This document shows, one piece after another, positions 24,855-30,278 of a DNA stretch of 37,926 nt (position 1 is its first letter; each line of letters opens with the position of its first letter). Source of the stretch: an uncultured Opitutia bacterium. Its GTDB lineage: Bacteria > Verrucomicrobiota > Verrucomicrobiia > Opitutales > Opitutaceae. The notes beneath the pieces were generated by a model, which made no database searches, was not told the DNA's origin, and worked only from the letters and a program-made list of their open reading frames with translations. The stretch covers positions 1 through 37,926 of the forward strand of contig CAIJFT010000019.1 in the NCBI GenBank assembly GCA_903820035.1. Reading direction: 5' to 3'. The position numbers and the translations under genes are program-made.

Positions 24855-25982
24855 TCAGAACGCTTCGCCGCGCAGGAGCTGCCGCTTGCGTTGCAGGTAG
24901 TGCTCGAAGTTCGACCACGAAACGTCCGGCGGCACGAGGTGATCCACCGTCGGGATAAACCCGCCGGCCGCTACCAGCGGCTGCAGCGTCCGGAGATGGG
25001 CGTCGATCGCGACCGGCCCCTTGGCCAACTCCCGCTTATCCACCCCGCCCCATAACCGCAGCGCGCGGCCGAACTTCTTCCGGATCGCCACCGGATCCAT
25101 CTCCGACGCGCGCTCCAGCGGCCAGATGGCGTCGACGCCGGCCTCGAGCAAAAGCGGGATGAGCAGCTCGCAGTTGCCGTCCGTATCGACGACAATCCAC
25201 GGCACGCCGGCCGAGCGGAAATACGCCACGAGCCGCTTCATGTGCGGGAGGATGAACGTGCGGTACATATCCGGGCTGAGCAATGGACCGTTCTTCATGC
25301 TCATGTCCTCGTTGATGAAAATATAATCCGGCTTCACCCCGCGCTCGAGCACCGGCCGCGCCGTCTCAATCGTGAAGTCCGCCACAAACTCCATCATCTC
25401 ATGCATCAGCTCCGGTTGGTCGTACCACGCGTAACTCAGGTTTTCCGTCCCCATCCAGTCGCGCGCCCGCCAATAAAAGCCGAGCGTGCTGCAGTTCTTC
25501 CCGAGCACGAGCACGTGTTCGCGCTGCTCCCAGGCGGACCATTGAAACTGGTCCCAGTACGCCGGGTAACGGCTCGGCGACGACGGCCGGAATCGGTGCT
25601 TGAGCGCCGCGAAATCCGCGGGTGTCTCCACCGGAAACCGCAGGTACTCGTCCATACTCGCCCGCATTCCGCCGACCGCCCCGGTGACGAGCGCGCGGCT
25701 CACGACGCCGTTCGCCCGCTGAATCACCTCGGTCTCCCCGTCGCGCGAGAGCACCTTCTCCTCATAGGCAGGGACCATGTCGAAACGCACATCGATGTAC
25801 TCGCGGGGGTCCATGCCCCACTGCGCCTCCCCCGTGAACCAGTCCCAGTGAAACTCATCCACCGCCAAACCTTCCGCGCGCCAGCGCTCCTTCGTCTGCA
25901 CCCAGGTGCCCACCTCGTGGTTCGGCACCTGGTCAACCGGCTGGTAATTCATACAGGCATGGAAGCGTTCGCGGGACGTCAT
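24855..25982 (-). CDS. UroD-family (COG0407) corrinoid methyltransferase-like protein
   Basis: The 375-residue TIM-barrel protein belongs to the uroporphyrinogen decarboxylase superfamily that includes MtaA, MtbA, CmuA and MtvA methyltransferases. Support: the opening SRERFHACMNYQPVDQVPN, the INEDMSMKNGPLLSPDMYRTFI segment (about 223-244), VVDTDGNCELLIPLLLEAGVDAIWPLE (264-290), and the closing GGFIPTVDHLVPPDVSWSNF. A role in heme synthesis is unlikely because the UroD porphyrin-site motifs are not evident and its neighbours are a corrinoid protein and its activator. The His-x-Cys zinc ligands of thiol methyltransferases are replaced by D266-x-D268, with H348 later. It would therefore more likely take a methyl group from a non-thiol donor; the donor is unknown. 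The start is ATG 25982, 16 bases after the RACo-like gene. Confidence 0.8.
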   Translation of the reverse strand: MTSRERFHACMNYQPVDQVPNHEVGTWVQTKERWRAEGLAVDEFHWDWFTGEAQWGMDPREYIDVRFDMVPAYEEKVLSRDGETEVIQRANGVVSRALVTGAVGGMRASMDEYLRFPVETPADFAALKHRFRPSSPSRYPAYWDQFQWSAWEQREHVLVLGKNCSTLGFYWRARDWMGTENLSYAWYDQPELMHEMMEFVADFTIETARPVLERGVKPDYIFINEDMSMKNGPLLSPDMYRTFILPHMKRLVAYFRSAGVPWIVVDTDGNCELLIPLLLEAGVDAIWPLERASEMDPVAIRKKFGRALRLWGGVDKRELAKGPVAIDAHLRTLQPLVAAGGFIPTVDHLVPPDVSWSNFEHYLQRKRQLLRGEAF

Positions 25983-25998
25983 GGGGAAAAGGCGGTGA

Positions 25999-27597
25999 TC
26001 AGAGTGAAAGGTGGTCGATGTACGCGTCCTCGAAGCCGGGTTGCAGATTGAGTTCAATCGACTCCATCCGACCGCAAGCGGTCTGCATCTCCGCGAGTAG
26101 GCTGCGATCATTCAACGCCAGAAACGCGCCGCCGAGCGACGTGTTCCCCACGACGGCAACCTGCGCCTCGGTAAAGCCGGGCAACAGCCCGCAGCCAATC
26201 GCGTGCGCCAGCGACAAATGCAGCCCAAAGCCTCCGGCCAGGTGCACGCGTTGCACTTGGGCCGGGGTAGTTTCGAGCAATCCAAGCAGCGTGGTGATGC
26301 CCGCCGCGATCGCCGCCTTCGCCTGCAAGAGGCGCGCGATGTCGACCTCGGAAATCCAAATCGGACCCGCCGCTCCGTGCGCGTGCAACCGCAACTTCCA
26401 GCCGTACGCGTCGGCCACGAGCGTGTCACCCGCCGCGGCGCGCAACGCGGCCGTGAACCGGCCGCTCGTGCCGATGAAACCGGCCCGCCGCGCTTCCCCC
26501 AAGAAATCGACATACGCCGAGCCGCACAACCCGAGCGGGCGCGGACCGCCGCCAATCACGTCGCACTCAACCGAAAACGGCGCGGCCCGCAGCCGCACCC
26601 GCTCGATCGCCCCGACCACGCCGCGCACGCCGCTGGTCAGCCCCGCGCCCTCGAACGCCGGACCCGCCGCCGTGGCGCAGCCGATCAACCGCTCGCCGAC
26701 CTTGGCCACGATCTCCCCGTTGGTCCCGACATCGACGAGCAGCGTCGGTCCGTCGTCGTACAGCATGCCGGTCGCCACGATCCCCGCCGCGAGGTCCGCG
26801 CCGACATACGCCGCCGGCCCGGGGAGCAAATGGACCGCCGCATCCGCCGCGCCGAAGTCCAAACCGAGCGCCGCCGGAGCGTAGGTGCGGTAATCCAAAA
26901 ACACGGCGCGGAACGGATGCGTTCCCAGCGGGGTCGGATCAACGCCCGCCAGCAGGTGTTGCATCGTGGTGTTCGCCGCCACGGTCATCACGGCGACCTC
27001 CCGCAACGGCACGCCCGCGTCCACCGCCGCCTTGATGAGCAGTGGCTGCAACGTCTCCACCGCAATCGCCCGCTGCAGTTCGGCCACCGCCGCCGGACCG
27101 GTCGCACAAAACTGGATGCGCGTCAGCACGTCCTCGCCGTAACGGATCTGCGCGTTAAAGCCCGAAGCCGCCGCCATCACCCGGCCGTCGCTCAAATCAC
27201 AGAGCGCCAGCGCCACCGTCGTCGTGCCGACGTCCACCGCCGCGCCGTACCGCGCATTCGCCGCGAGCGGATCATGCGCCCACGGGATCCCCACTCGAAA
27301 TTCCGACACCACCGCCGGCTCGTGCCGCAACCACGACCGCGCCGGCACCGTGACCTCCGCGCCCGCGACCTCCCGCACCAGCAGCTGACAGGCTTTCACC
27401 CGCCGCACTGCACCACTCGGCCCGCCACCGATCGACACCTCGCACCCCGCGCACCGCCCGCGCCCGCCACAACGGGTGTTCAACGGCATGCCGCGGCGGG
27501 CCAGCAGGGCCGCCAACGTCAGCCCGTCCTCCTCCGCCGCCGCGACCAATCCGCGCATCCCGTCCGGCGTCGCGAGGCGCACGGCGACGGTCTTCAC
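25999..27597 (-). CDS. RACo-type corrinoid activation protein (2Fe-2S ferredoxin plus ASKHA ATPase)
   Basis: The 532-residue protein matches reductive activators of corrinoid proteins (RACo, RamA-like DUF4445 group). The N-terminal ferredoxin domain has a 2Fe-2S cysteine set C43, C49, C52 and C70 (RCGGRGRCAGC pattern). The rest is an actin-like ATPase with phosphate-binding motifs GAAVDVGTTTVALAL and TLLVDVGTNGEIVAKV, a central GCATAAGPAFEGAG, LGLCGSAYVD, and LAGGFGLHLSLA. Family members use ATP to reduce inactive cob(II)alamin to cob(I)alamin after accidental oxidation. The start is a GTG at 27597, overlapping the DUF1638 stop as GTGA, so translation is coupled. An upstream in-frame extension exists but runs antiparallel to no domain and inside DUF1638. 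Confidence 0.9.
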   Translation of the reverse strand: MKTVAVRLATPDGMRGLVAAAEEDGLTLAALLARRGMPLNTRCGGRGRCAGCEVSIGGGPSGAVRRVKACQLLVREVAGAEVTVPARSWLRHEPAVVSEFRVGIPWAHDPLAANARYGAAVDVGTTTVALALCDLSDGRVMAAASGFNAQIRYGEDVLTRIQFCATGPAAVAELQRAIAVETLQPLLIKAAVDAGVPLREVAVMTVAANTTMQHLLAGVDPTPLGTHPFRAVFLDYRTYAPAALGLDFGAADAAVHLLPGPAAYVGADLAAGIVATGMLYDDGPTLLVDVGTNGEIVAKVGERLIGCATAAGPAFEGAGLTSGVRGVVGAIERVRLRAAPFSVECDVIGGGPRPLGLCGSAYVDFLGEARRAGFIGTSGRFTAALRAAAGDTLVADAYGWKLRLHAHGAAGPIWISEVDIARLLQAKAAIAAGITTLLGLLETTPAQVQRVHLAGGFGLHLSLAHAIGCGLLPGFTEAQVAVVGNTSLGGAFLALNDRSLLAEMQTACGRMESIELNLQPGFEDAYIDHLSL

Positions 27598-28394
27598 GGG
27601 CCCGGCGGCATTGGCACCGCCTTGATGATCGTTGCGTCGGCGGTCAACCGGATCGCGTGGTGCGGCGGGACCACGAGAAAACGCCGTTCGTCCCAATTCC
27701 CCGCTAGTAAATCCACCAACAACTGCGGATCGCCCTTCACGTGTTCGAAGGACCACCCGAGGCACCCGGCACAGTGCTGCGTGTAGCGCACATCTTTTTC
27801 CGTCTCCCCCACGCCGAGTCCGACATACGCCGCCCGGTCGTACTTCGCAATCCACTGCGCCTCGACCTCCATCAGATAATCCACCTCATCCCGGCCGAAT
27901 TTTTCCGTGTACTCTCGCCGCAGCTTGGCGTCGCGCTCCGGCCCCGGCGGGGCCTGGCTCCCGATCCAGCCCGGACTGTACCAATACGTGCCCGGATGCT
28001 CGCGGAGGTAATCGGCGTAGCGCTCCTTGTCCCCGAGAAACAGCGTCACACAATCGTGCGCCCGCGCGATCACGAGCGGGCACCGTCCGTGCCGCAGGTT
28101 TTCCACCCCGCGGCTGCACAGACCGTACACCAACGCGATCACCTCCGTCCCCTCATCCGCCTCCGCGCGATCGACGGCGGCCTGCAATTGGCGTTGCAGC
28201 CGCACCGGCTCGTTGTGCAGCCCCTGCGGCATGAACACCAGATCGCGCACCTGATCGAGCCCCTGCGCAAAGTGTCGTATTTCCTTTTCCAGGACATTGC
28301 AGGCGATGACGGTCAGGGCGGGTTTCGCGCGCGGAAAACCCGAAGCCTTCGCCCCGCCGGCCGACGCCCGTGAACTGTTGATTTCCACATCCAT
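27594..28394 (-). CDS. DUF1638 domain-containing protein
   Basis: This 266-residue protein is a DUF1638 family member, recognisable by ALTVIACNVLEKEI near residue 24, YGLCSRGVENLR, the ARAHDCVTLFLGDKERY segment, GTYWYSPGWIG, and CAGCLGWSFEHVKGD near the end. Several conserved cysteines and a His suggest a metal site, but no reaction is known to me. DUF1638 genes are often found beside corrinoid methyltransferase systems, and here the protein is coupled by GTGA overlap to the RACo-like gene. I used ATG 28394, with GGAAG five bases upstream. A stronger AAGGAG at 28434-28439 precedes a GTG (28428) in a different frame, so the true translation start deserves checking. Confidence 0.85.
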   Translation of the reverse strand: MDVEINSSRASAGGAKASGFPRAKPALTVIACNVLEKEIRHFAQGLDQVRDLVFMPQGLHNEPVRLQRQLQAAVDRAEADEGTEVIALVYGLCSRGVENLRHGRCPLVIARAHDCVTLFLGDKERYADYLREHPGTYWYSPGWIGSQAPPGPERDAKLRREYTEKFGRDEVDYLMEVEAQWIAKYDRAAYVGLGVGETEKDVRYTQHCAGCLGWSFEHVKGDPQLLVDLLAGNWDERRFLVVPPHHAIRLTADATIIKAVPMPPGP

Positions 28395-28407
28395 CACCGC
28401 TTCCGAC

Positions 28408-28430
28408 CCGTGCCGGAACTTCGGCCACGG
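28408..28430. promoter_or_regulatory. 23-bp near-perfect palindrome, candidate operator of the corrinoid locus
   Basis: CCGTG-C-C-G-GAA-C-TTC-G-G-C-CACGG is a dyad of 23 bases centred on C28419, with only two symmetric mismatched pairs. It lies in the 85-base gap between the divergent DUF1638 and corrinoid-protein genes, 14 bases before the DUF1638 ATG, where a repressor could control both directions. No regulator gene is adjacent. Confidence 0.6.
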
Positions 28431-28479
28431 TAGCTCCTTAGGGTTTGTCTTGTCCACGCCCGTTTCCACACTCGGCGCC

Positions 28480-29118
28480 ATGCCGTCCGTCACCGCTCTC
28501 ACCGAGGCCGTCGCCGCCGGCAAACGCAACGATGCCTTGCGCCTTACCCAGGAGCTCCTCGCCGCCGGAATCCCGCCCCAAGTCATCGTCGAAACCGGTC
28601 TCGTCCCCGGGATGTCGATCGTCGGTGAGCGCTTCCGCAAAAACGAAATCTTCGTCCCCGAAATGCTCATCGCCGCCCGCGCGATGAAGGAGTCGCTCAA
28701 GCTGCTCGAACCCCTCCTCGTCGCCGCCGGCATCCGCCCGAAATACACTGCGATCATCGGCACCGCCCAGGGCGACCTGCACGACATTGGCAAGAACCTG
28801 GTGGCGATGATGTGGCGCGGCGCCAATTTTAACGTGATTGATCTCGGCACCAACGTGAGCGCCGAACGCTACGTCGCCGCCGCCCGCGAGCATCAGGCGC
28901 ACCTCGTCGGCATCTCGGCCCTCCTCACCACCACGATGCCGGCGATGAAAGAAGCCGTCCTCGCCCTCAAGGCCGCCGGCCTCACGGGCACCAAGGTCGT
29001 CATCGGCGGCGCGCCCGTCACCCAGGACTTCGCCGATGAGATCGGGGCCGACGGCTTCGCGGCCGACGCCGGCACCGCCGTCTCCCTCGCCCGCCGGCTG
29101 GTCGGCGAAGCGGCTTAG
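28480..29118 (+). CDS. Methyltransferase cognate corrinoid protein (MtaC/MttC/MtvC type)
   Basis: The 212-residue protein is a stand-alone cobalamin carrier. Residues 1-85 form the helical cap domain (B12-binding-2), with ETGLVPGMSIVGERFRKNEI and FVPEMLIAARAMKESLKLLEP. Residues 88-212 form the Rossmann-like B12 domain with the base-off ligand motif DLHDIG (D99, H101, G104), GISALLTTTMPAMKEAV, and VVIGGAPVTQDFADEIGADG. Such proteins shuttle a methyl group between two methyltransferases. It is divergent from the DUF1638-RACo-UroD genes and followed by a homocysteine methyltransferase. The ATG at 28480 gives the family's N-terminus; no Shine-Dalgarno is evident. Confidence 0.94.
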   Translation: MPSVTALTEAVAAGKRNDALRLTQELLAAGIPPQVIVETGLVPGMSIVGERFRKNEIFVPEMLIAARAMKESLKLLEPLLVAAGIRPKYTAIIGTAQGDLHDIGKNLVAMMWRGANFNVIDLGTNVSAERYVAAAREHQAHLVGISALLTTTMPAMKEAVLALKAAGLTGTKVVIGGAPVTQDFADEIGADGFAADAGTAVSLARRLVGEAA

Positions 29119-29131
29119 GGCGCGCGCCGGT

Positions 29132-29178
29132 TTCACGGTGAAGGTTGAAAGCCCACCCGCCGGCACAAGCCGCTCAAC
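29132..29178. repeat. GGTTGAAAG-type inverted repeat after the corrinoid gene
   Basis: TTCACGGTGAA is a small palindrome that runs into GGTTGAAAG (29143-29151); GGTTGA then pairs with TCAACC at about 29174-29179. It shares the 9-mer of the elements at 7355, 7376 and 9325, and lies shortly after the corrinoid-protein stop at 29118. Confidence 0.45.
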
Positions 29179-29204
29179 CGGATATTGTCCTTTGCGGGAC
29201 CAGT

Positions 29205-29279
29205 CCGGGTGAAAACGACCGGCTTCATGGTGGCGCGCTCGATTTTCGGAGCACGGCAGACGCTCCGTCGTTCACCGGG
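29205..29279 (+). other. Possible structured leader RNA before the homocysteine methyltransferase
   Basis: In the 260-base gap before the gene at 29379, GGTGAAaaCGAC (29208-29219) can pair with GTCGTTCACC-like sequence ending at 29279, enclosing a CGGAGC/GCTCCG stem (29247-29252 with 29262-29267). I cannot match it to a cobalamin, SAM or SAH riboswitch consensus: no GCCACTG B12-box-like core is seen. It is reported as a fold by eye only. Confidence 0.3.
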
Positions 29280-29378
29280 CGACAGACCACCTTCATTATC
29301 AAAATCCCGTCGCGCTCCGCGTTCTTACCCCGTTTGTCACGTGCCGGACCACCCTCCCCCCCCGCTCCCTTTTCACGC

Positions 29379-30278
29379 ATGAACCGCACCGACTCCCTCC
29401 GTCAAACCCTCGCCCGCCGCGCCCTCCTCGGTGACGGCGCGACCGGCACGCAATTACAGTCGATGGGCCTGAAGCCCGGCGCGTGCGGCGAATTCTGGAA
29501 CACCGCCCATCCCGACCGCGTGCGGGAGCTCCACCGCCGCTACGTCACCGCCGGCGCGGATCTGCTCACGACGAATACCTTCGGTGCGAATGCCTTCGTC
29601 CTCGGCCACCACGGCGCGGCAGACCGCGGGCGCGAACTCAACGTGGCCGGGGCCCAGCTCGCGCGGGAACTCGCCGGCGACGCCGCCTGGGTCCTCGGCG
29701 ATGTCGGCCCCTTCGGCGGCATGCTCGAGCCCCTCGGCGAGACCTTACCCGAGGATGCCGCGAAGGCGTTTCGGGATCAGGCCGCCGCGTTGCTCGAGGG
29801 CGGGGCCGACGCCATTTTGGTCGAGACGATGTCCGACCCCGTCGAGATGGCCCTCGCCATTGGCGCCGCGCAGGCCGCCGGGGCCACGTTGGTCATCGCC
29901 ACCTATGCGTTTCAAAAATCAGCAGTCGGGCTGCGCACCATGATGGGCACCACGGTCGCTGCGGCGGTGGCCGCCGCGCTCGCCGCGGGCGCAGATGTGG
30001 TGGGAGCCAATTGCGGCACGGACCTGTCGCTCGGCGATTACGAAAAGCTCGCCGCCGAACTGGTCGCCGCCGCCAAAGGCAACCCGGTCATCGTGCAGCC
30101 CAACGCCGGTTCGCCGATTCTCCGCGAGGGCAGAATCTCGTACGCCGAGTCGGCGGCGTTGTTCGCCGCCGCCGCGCCGCGACTGCTGGGCGCCGGAGCC
30201 CGGCTCATCGGCGGTTGCTGCGGCAGTACGCCGGAGCACATTGCCGCGATGCGCCCCGTCGTGAAGCCGACCGGCTAA
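29379..30278 (+). CDS. Homocysteine S-methyltransferase domain protein (MetH N-terminal-domain/BHMT-like)
   Basis: The 299-residue TIM barrel has the three zinc-binding cysteines of the family: C212 in VVGANCGTDLS and C280/C281 in LIGGCCGSTPEHI. It also has the opening LLGDGATGTQLQSMGLKPG and the TTNTFGANAFVLGHHG homocysteine site. Members move a methyl group onto homocysteine to make methionine, from betaine, S-methylmethionine, or methylcobalamin when part of MetH. Size equals a single MetH Hcy domain with no folate, B12 or reactivation domain attached. Next to a free corrinoid protein and its activator, it plausibly serves as the acceptor-side methyltransferase. Start ATG 29379 is preceded by no Shine-Dalgarno; the frame is open further upstream to 29145, but without family likeness. 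Confidence 0.9.
   Translation: MNRTDSLRQTLARRALLGDGATGTQLQSMGLKPGACGEFWNTAHPDRVRELHRRYVTAGADLLTTNTFGANAFVLGHHGAADRGRELNVAGAQLARELAGDAAWVLGDVGPFGGMLEPLGETLPEDAAKAFRDQAAALLEGGADAILVETMSDPVEMALAIGAAQAAGATLVIATYAFQKSAVGLRTMMGTTVAAAVAAALAAGADVVGANCGTDLSLGDYEKLAAELVAAAKGNPVIVQPNAGSPILREGRISYAESAALFAAAAPRLLGAGARLIGGCCGSTPEHIAAMRPVVKPTG

What the first reader, a model, noticed from the sequence alone, without database searches (positions are those of the whole stretch)
24855..30278. Compact corrinoid methyl-transfer locus that could work as a dispersed methionine synthase
Seen: a UroD-family methyltransferase, a RACo-type activator (2Fe-2S plus ATPase), DUF1638, a free MtaC-type corrinoid protein with DLHDIG, and a stand-alone homocysteine methyltransferase with three zinc cysteines, arranged as two divergent arms. 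Established: corrinoid proteins shuttle methyl groups between a donor-side and an acceptor-side enzyme and need RACo/RamA for repair. Inference: the acceptor here is homocysteine rather than tetrahydrofolate or a thiol coenzyme, since no pterin methyltransferase is present. The system would turn a methylated compound directly into methionine.
Basis: partly seen in the sequence, partly recalled or inferred. Interest (0 to 1): 0.78.

Follow-up and report, generated by a model that had tools for sequence, protein, structure and literature searches.

The report
Demethylase locus feeding homocysteine
A five-gene set in a bacterial draft genome probably strips methyl groups from an unknown compound, parks them on a vitamin-B12 protein and hands them straight to homocysteine to make methionine; the parts are known, but this pairing of donor and acceptor seems undescribed and is untested.

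Summary
The five genes are real and correctly placed. One arm is DUF1638–RACo–UroD-family enzyme (tightly packed), the other a free corrinoid protein and, after 260 bp, a homocysteine methyltransferase (HMT) closest to MetH among solved structures, with three zinc cysteines. The genome also has an ordinary MetH (two adjacent ORFs), so this is a second route. A profile that readily finds stand-alone pterin methyltransferases in relatives finds none here. Across 252 family genomes the UroD and HMT orthologues co-occur (33 and 31 genomes, 18 shared). Of the 33 UroD genomes, 30 also have a stand-alone pterin enzyme; the three without it all have the HMT. The window UroD has Asp-x-Asp where thiol-methylating relatives have His-x-Cys, which suits a donor-side enzyme. 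Best reading: a demethylase coupled to homocysteine, a folate-bypassing variant of the known split methionine synthase and MtgBCDE systems. Substrate, direction and partner contacts are inferred. Against an exclusive homocysteine route: a second, His-x-Cys type UroD enzyme lies elsewhere in the genome, and most relatives with this locus also have the folate-side enzyme. New variant of a known kind.

The parts
24855..25982 (-). UroD-superfamily methyltransferase (375 aa), presumed donor-side enzyme; D266-x-D268 in place of the His-x-Cys zinc motif
   Evidence: Pfam URO-D; alignment A3; weak profile alignment to 4ay7 (E 0.032) and alignment with paralogues; AlphaFold2 model pLDDT 91.6, PDB fold matches
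25999..27597 (-). RACo/RamA-type corrinoid activase (532 aa): 2Fe-2S cysteine motif and ASKHA ATPase
   Evidence: Pfam RACo_C_ter and Raco_middle; NCBIfam AcsV-like, below cut-off; cysteine motif in 20 of 20 sequences checked
27594..28394 (-). DUF1638 protein (266 aa), presumed helper of corrinoid reactivation; stop overlaps the RACo start
   Evidence: Pfam DUF1638; start; alignment A4; AlphaFold2 pLDDT 90.2
28395..28479 (.). 85-bp divergent intergenic region, presumed to carry the promoters of both arms
   Evidence: lies between the two chosen starts; no sigma-70-like match found
28480..29118 (+). Free MtaC/MtgC-type corrinoid protein (212 aa, DLHDIG)
   Evidence: Pfam B12-binding and B12-binding_2; only B12-binding_2 match outside MetH found in the genome
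29379..30278 (+). Stand-alone homocysteine methyltransferase (299 aa), nearest to MetH among solved structures, with zinc cysteines C212, C280, C281
   Evidence: Pfam S-methyl_trans; alignment A2; PDB sequence searches; tree

Best explanation
A corrinoid-dependent demethylase module whose terminal acceptor in this genome is homocysteine. The UroD-family enzyme takes a methyl group from an unknown, probably oxygen-linked, methyl compound and puts it on Co(I) of the free corrinoid protein. The HMT moves it to zinc-bound homocysteine, giving methionine without folate. RACo, helped by DUF1638, re-reduces the cobalt when it slips to Co(II). It runs beside the ordinary MetH. Shown: gene content, order, co-occurrence, motifs, no detectable stand-alone pterin methyltransferase. 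Inferred: direction of flow, substrate class, protein contacts.
For: Gene set and tightly packed arm. The only free corrinoid protein of this family and the only HMT outside MetH found in the genome are these two. No stand-alone pterin methyltransferase by a profile that finds true ones at E 1e-66 or better (window genome best 1.2e-8). The window HMT alone matches T. maritima MetH at 2.7e-40, BHMT at 3.5e-17 and an S-methylmethionine-type enzyme (5dml; that label is recalled, the record says homocysteine S-methyltransferase) at 5.8e-15. UroD and HMT orthologues: 33 and 31 of 252 genomes, 18 shared, Fisher p 6.6e-11; by genus 13, 11, 7 of 49, p 0.004. All 33 UroD genomes have at least one of the two acceptor types; the three without the pterin enzyme (G000, G438, G468) have the HMT, and the 15 without the HMT have the pterin enzyme. 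HMT and carrier are neighbours, often with UroD genes between them, in many relatives' loci fetched. A homologous carrier, HMT, RamA-like and DUF1638 set was shown by mutants to be needed for growth without methionine in Phaeobacter (PMC5764234, passages). Asp-x-Asp at the thiol-zinc site; O-methyltransferases of the superfamily have carboxylates or non-ligands in place of one or both Cys (PMC10418091).
Against: No biochemistry. Three UroD genomes lacking the pterin enzyme is a small number (with 18 of 33 carrying the HMT, 3 of 3 by chance is about 0.15), and G468 is a 980-contig assembly without any PF00809 match and with the locus cut by contig ends. A His-x-Cys...Cys UroD enzyme sits unlinked at G000 C414 and could be another donor or a thiol-side acceptor. 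G455 has carrier, HMT, DUF1638 and RACo but no UroD orthologue. G438, the best second case, shows no DUF1638 in the 20 kb fetched and has further UroD genes between carrier and HMT. The exact five genes without a pterin enzyme were seen only in the window. NCBIfam ranks the HMT nearer to HMT/MTHFR and betaine-type models (252 and 235 bits, both below cut-off) than to metH (141 bits). In the HMT tree it is not next to the roseobacter HMTs, so the genetic precedent is a homologue, not a close orthologue. Carrier-HMT gap of 260 bp. Here the zinc His is also replaced by Asp, which the cited rule does not cover. The assembly is a 469-contig draft, so absences are provisional.
Confidence: 0.57

Rival explanations
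1. The locus is a demethylase whose methyl group normally goes to tetrahydrofolate, as relatives could do, with the pterin enzyme missing from this draft assembly; the HMT is a side branch.
For: 30 of 33 family genomes with the UroD orthologue have a stand-alone pterin methyltransferase, several inside the cluster. The Pfam-based search missed one that tblastn found in G509.
Against: The more sensitive profile search found none in the window genome, 98% complete, nor in G438, 95% complete.
Confidence: 0.2
2. A folate-free back-up methionine synthase charged mainly by the unlinked His-x-Cys UroD enzyme (methylthio donor), with the window UroD serving a minor or different role.
For: The C414 enzyme has the H-x-C...C site of thiol methyltransferases and matches the MtaA/CmuA family at 1.7e-44, below its cut-off; a related gene (UroD3) lies in the clusters of many relatives. 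Kountz and Balskus propose corrinoid methionine salvage from methylthio compounds (PMC10418091).
Against: The window UroD, not the C414 gene, shares the RACo-DUF1638 arm; its orthologue is in the same fetched stretch as RACo or DUF1638 in 19 of the 24 loci that hold it, directly beside one of them in 7.
Confidence: 0.14
3. The HMT works alone as a betaine or S-methylmethionine:homocysteine methyltransferase and its place beside the carrier is incidental.
For: NCBIfam matches a betaine-homocysteine model (PRK07534, 235 bits, below its 338 cut-off) more strongly than metH (141 bits).
Against: Solved MetH chains are matched better than BHMT or 5dml by the single sequence (2.7e-40 against 3.5e-17 and 5.8e-15) and by the profile. 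Mausz et al. argue that the related Bmt/MtgE proteins lack the betaine-binding residues (PMC12478193, Discussion). I did not compare those residues.
Confidence: 0.09

Closest known systems
Split methionine synthase of Phaeobacter inhibens with RamA-like and DUF1638 proteins (Price 2018, PMC5764234, passages seen)
   Same: Separate HMT and corrinoid protein, RamA-like activase and DUF1638, used for methionine synthesis
   Different: That system has a separate pterin protein and no ordinary MetH; the window has a UroD enzyme, no stand-alone pterin protein found, and a MetH
MtgBCDE glycine betaine demethylase/methionine synthase of Ruegeria pomeroyi (Mausz 2025, PMC12478193, abstract, passages and Discussion seen)
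   Same: One carrier links demethylation of a methyl compound with methionine synthesis; RamA and DUF1638 present
   Different: Donor enzyme is MttB-family (PF06253) and the pterin enzyme MtgD is essential; here the donor is UroD-family and no MtgD was found
Type 1 mlp gene clusters (Kountz and Balskus 2023, PMC10418091, parts 1-4 of 6 and passages seen)
   Same: UroD-family enzymes plus corrinoid protein plus Ram/RACE activase without a tetrahydrofolate methylase
   Different: Those have at least two SCMT-like enzymes, nearly always with His-Cys-Cys zinc sites, one transcription direction, obligate anaerobes, and no HMT as acceptor in the text I saw
UroD-family O-demethylases and the chloromethane enzyme CdmB (MtvB, OdmB, VdmB, MtoB; PMC13222342, passages seen)
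   Same: Fold and donor-side role on a free corrinoid protein
   Different: In the Cdm system the methyl goes to tetrahydrofolate; the window enzyme's substrate is unknown and its sequence was not compared with these directly

Membership tests
Split/multimeric methionine synthase (Phaeobacter type, MtgCDE) | separate HMT (PF02574) protein | tested here: met
Split/multimeric methionine synthase (Phaeobacter type, MtgCDE) | separate corrinoid protein (PF02310/PF02607) | tested here: met
Split/multimeric methionine synthase (Phaeobacter type, MtgCDE) | separate pterin-binding protein (PF00809) | tested here: not met
   none found but the MetH domain in the held draft genome
Split/multimeric methionine synthase (Phaeobacter type, MtgCDE) | RamA-like activase and DUF1638 | tested here: met
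Split/multimeric methionine synthase (Phaeobacter type, MtgCDE) | needed for growth without methionine | not testable with these tools
   needs mutants
Type 1 mlp gene cluster | at least two SCMT-like UroD enzymes in one cluster | tested here: not met
   one UroD gene in the locus; three PF01208 matches genome-wide, one being HemE and one unlinked
Type 1 mlp gene cluster | all core genes in one direction | tested here: not met
   divergent arms
Type 1 mlp gene cluster | no tetrahydrofolate methylase within 20 kb | tested here: met
   only PF00809 match of the genome is on contig C96; the window contig ends about 7.6 kb beyond the HMT, so that side is seen only so far
Soluble CoM methyltransferase (SCMT) | His-x-Cys...Cys zinc site | tested here: not met
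   Asp-x-Asp...Asp-His in 18 of 18 aligned rows, window included; placed against H-x-C (weak)
UroD-family O-demethylase (MT-I) | UroD fold | tested here: met
UroD-family O-demethylase (MT-I) | methyl transfer from a methoxy compound to the corrinoid protein | not testable with these tools
   needs assay
Core methionine synthases MesA-D (PMC7857596, passages seen) | MetE-type catalytic domain | tested here: not met
   HMT matches only PF02574 in Pfam
Betaine-homocysteine methyltransferase (BHMT) | betaine-binding residues | not tested
   PDB searches favour MetH, NCBIfam favours a betaine-type model over metH, below cut-off; residues not compared

The most novel reading that the evidence does not exclude
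A folate-free route in which a carboxylate-site UroD enzyme demethylates an oxygen-linked methyl compound and the methyl passes through one free corrinoid protein directly to homocysteine. Within one bacterial family the acceptor of this carrier has switched between tetrahydrofolate (stand-alone pterin enzyme), both, and homocysteine alone.
Probability: 0.45. Interest if true: 0.66.

Novelty: new variant of a known kind. Interest (0 to 1): 0.52.

Why it matters
If true, some bacteria turn environmental methyl groups straight into methionine, bypassing folate, beside their normal methionine synthase. It would give a role to part of the large UroD-family expansion in this phylum (127 of 387 genomes sampled hold a relative of the window enzyme), and the family offers natural gain and loss of acceptor enzymes around one carrier lineage for testing how corrinoid proteins choose partners. 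It also adds contexts for DUF1638, for which Price et al. had no specific proposal.
Full report
Observation. The window holds the five genes at the stated coordinates. On the minus strand, DUF1638 (28394-27594), RACo (27597-25999) and the UroD-family enzyme (25982-24855) are packed with a 4-base overlap and a 16-bp gap. On the plus strand, the corrinoid protein (28480-29118) is followed after 260 bp by the HMT (29379-30278). RACo carries the C-x5-C-x2-C...C motif, as do 20 of 20 RACo sequences checked, window included. The HMT has C212, C280 and C281, invariant in 18 of 18 aligned rows and in 14 of 14 when only the closer ones are aligned. Against G435, dN and dS are 0.08/1.22 (UroD), 0.19/0.94 (RACo), 0.13/0.90 (DUF1638), 0.08/0.57 (corrinoid), 0.16/0.85 (HMT).

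The genome. The window is contig C19 of a 6.05-Mb, 469-contig assembly, 98% complete, 4.43% contaminated. It has two PF02574 matches (window and C96), two PF02607 matches (same places), one PF00809 match (C96) and three PF01208 matches (window, HemE on C308, and C414). C96 holds a MetH in two adjacent ORFs, 386 aa HMT and 906 aa pterin-B12-activation. So ordinary MetH is present, and the window corrinoid protein is the only free one of its family found. Taxonomy is not given by the tools for the window genome; the nearest named HMTs in the tree are from Akkermansiaceae and Terrimicrobiaceae (genomes very near the window may be left out there), so Verrucomicrobiota is my inference.

Absence of a pterin methyltransferase. 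The PF00809 search over 41 relatives gave only a MetH frame for G509, although tblastn shows a stand-alone pterin methyltransferase about 3.6 kb from its HMT. I therefore built a profile from eight stand-alone pterin methyltransferases (A1) and searched 252 family genomes. Best matches per genome fall in two groups: about 1e-67 to 1e-166, and 1e-5 to 1e-22; the printed places of the second group lie mostly in long MetH-like frames. The window genome's best is 1.2e-8; its place was beyond the printed list, and I take it for the C96 MetH domain. The same holds for G438 (3.3e-9).

Recurrence. In the 252 genomes the UroD orthologue (70% identity or more; next match 39%) is in 33 and the HMT orthologue (55% or more; next match 48%; two genomes by fragments) in 31, with 18 shared, Fisher p 6.6e-11, or 7 shared genera of 13 and 11 among 49, p 0.004. 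Relatedness is not corrected beyond that. Of the 31 HMT genomes, 12 lack a stand-alone pterin enzyme (G000, G080, G437, G438, G439, G455, G457, G459, G468, G474, G487, G573) and 19 have one; four of the 12 are under 90% complete. Of the 33 UroD genomes, three lack it (G000, G438, G468) and all three have the HMT; 15 lack the HMT and all 15 have the pterin enzyme, in G520 as a fragment. Three of three would come by chance about 0.15 of the time.

Neighbourhoods. I fetched stretches around selected hits, not all. All five orthologues lie in one locus in G513, G521, G527 and G528, each with further UroD genes, and each of these genomes also has a stand-alone pterin enzyme. G509 and G510 have the set with a more distant DUF1638. 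G438 has HMT, carrier, RACo and UroD with extra UroD genes and no DUF1638 seen. G468's locus is cut by contig ends. G455 has RACo, DUF1638, carrier and HMT (about 40 bp between alignment ends) without a UroD orthologue. G372 has UroD, RACo, DUF1638, carrier and a pterin enzyme but no HMT outside MetH. The exact five-gene set without a pterin enzyme was seen only in the window. Outside the family, carrier and HMT are neighbours in several of the 80 named loci kept (a capped list), for example L220, L221, L223, L226, L230, L253, and L221 (Terrimicrobiaceae) also has UroD genes, RACo and DUF1638.

The HMT. Alone it matches T. maritima MetH at 2.7e-40, other MetH chains at 2e-36 to 6e-19, BHMT at 3.5e-17 to 1.9e-15 and 5dml at 5.8e-15. 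The family profile, which includes one MetH row, gives 1.8e-70 to 7e-67 for MetH, 1e-32 for 5dml and about 1e-27 to 1e-29 for BHMT. NCBIfam ranks it otherwise: HMT/MTHFR model 252 bits, betaine model 235, metH 141, all below cut-off. In the HMT tree (54 rows, 36 of the 80 named loci among them) the window groups with relatives' cluster HMTs, separate from the roseobacter sequences L264 and L281, from HMT-MTHFR fusions and from MetH. In the carrier tree the window, G435, G438 and G455 form one clade, inside a 12-row clade that also has carriers of genomes with the pterin enzyme but no window-type HMT (G372, G390, G490, G595): one carrier lineage, two possible acceptors.

Mechanism. Donor-CH3 plus Co(I)-carrier, via UroD; CH3-Co(III)-carrier plus homocysteine, via HMT, to methionine; Co(II) rescue by RACo with DUF1638. 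The acceptor half rests on elimination, HMT class and co-occurrence, and on genetics of a homologous set: in Phaeobacter inhibens mutants of the HMT, carrier, pterin, RamA-like and DUF1638 genes are rescued by methionine (PMC5764234, passages). The donor half is inference.

Results against. A second UroD enzyme with H-x-C...C lies unlinked on C414; it could supply or remove methyl groups. The HMT in some high-completeness genomes (G573, G080, G474, G457) is not near the carrier in the stretches fetched. The RACo ferredoxin domain was not detected by Pfam.

Known and new. A dispersed methionine synthase is known (PMC5764234, PMC12478193). UroD plus carrier plus activase without a folate methylase is known (PMC10418091). 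I found no paper joining a UroD donor, a free carrier and an HMT acceptor, within an open-licence library. Hence a new variant of a known kind.

Noticed in passing
L055:9807-10817 (G000 C414:45944-46927): A second UroD-family methyltransferase in the window genome with the thiol-type H-x-C...C zinc site (MtaA/CmuA family E 1.7e-44, below cut-off), away from the locus.
   Followed up: partly
L054:8797-12757 (G000 C96): The genome's ordinary MetH is split into two adjacent ORFs: HMT (386 aa) and pterin-B12-activation (906 aa).
   Followed up: partly
G060 C4:85323, G283 C6:179175, G521 C22:57047, G590 C26:59031: Clusters of these relatives also carry a second HMT in a frame of about 650 aa with a methylenetetrahydrofolate reductase domain (Pfam-checked in G060).
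   Followed up: no
UroD paralogues in L039, L172, L176: UroD enzymes clustered around one carrier show different metal-site motifs (H-x-D, H-x-C, and D-x-D in the window type), suggesting a set of donor enzymes sharing one corrinoid protein.
   Followed up: partly
window:27594-28394: DUF1638 has invariant C32, H60, C93, H113, D114, C115 in 28 of 28 aligned rows and a confident model without a clear PDB match; a metal or cofactor site is possible.
   Followed up: partly
G000 and relatives: The PF00809 search gave no dihydropteroate synthase (FolP)-like match in the window genome and several relatives, while others of the family have one; that search is known to miss some genes.
   Followed up: no
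window:30477-37499: Next to the locus lie DUF1501 and DUF1549/1553/PSCyt proteins, an NHL-repeat protein and a BD-FAE (feruloyl esterase-like) hydrolase.
   Followed up: no
L108:8398-10328: In G274 another carrier type has a C-terminal 'virulence factor' (PF13769) domain and sits beside its own HMT.
   Followed up: no
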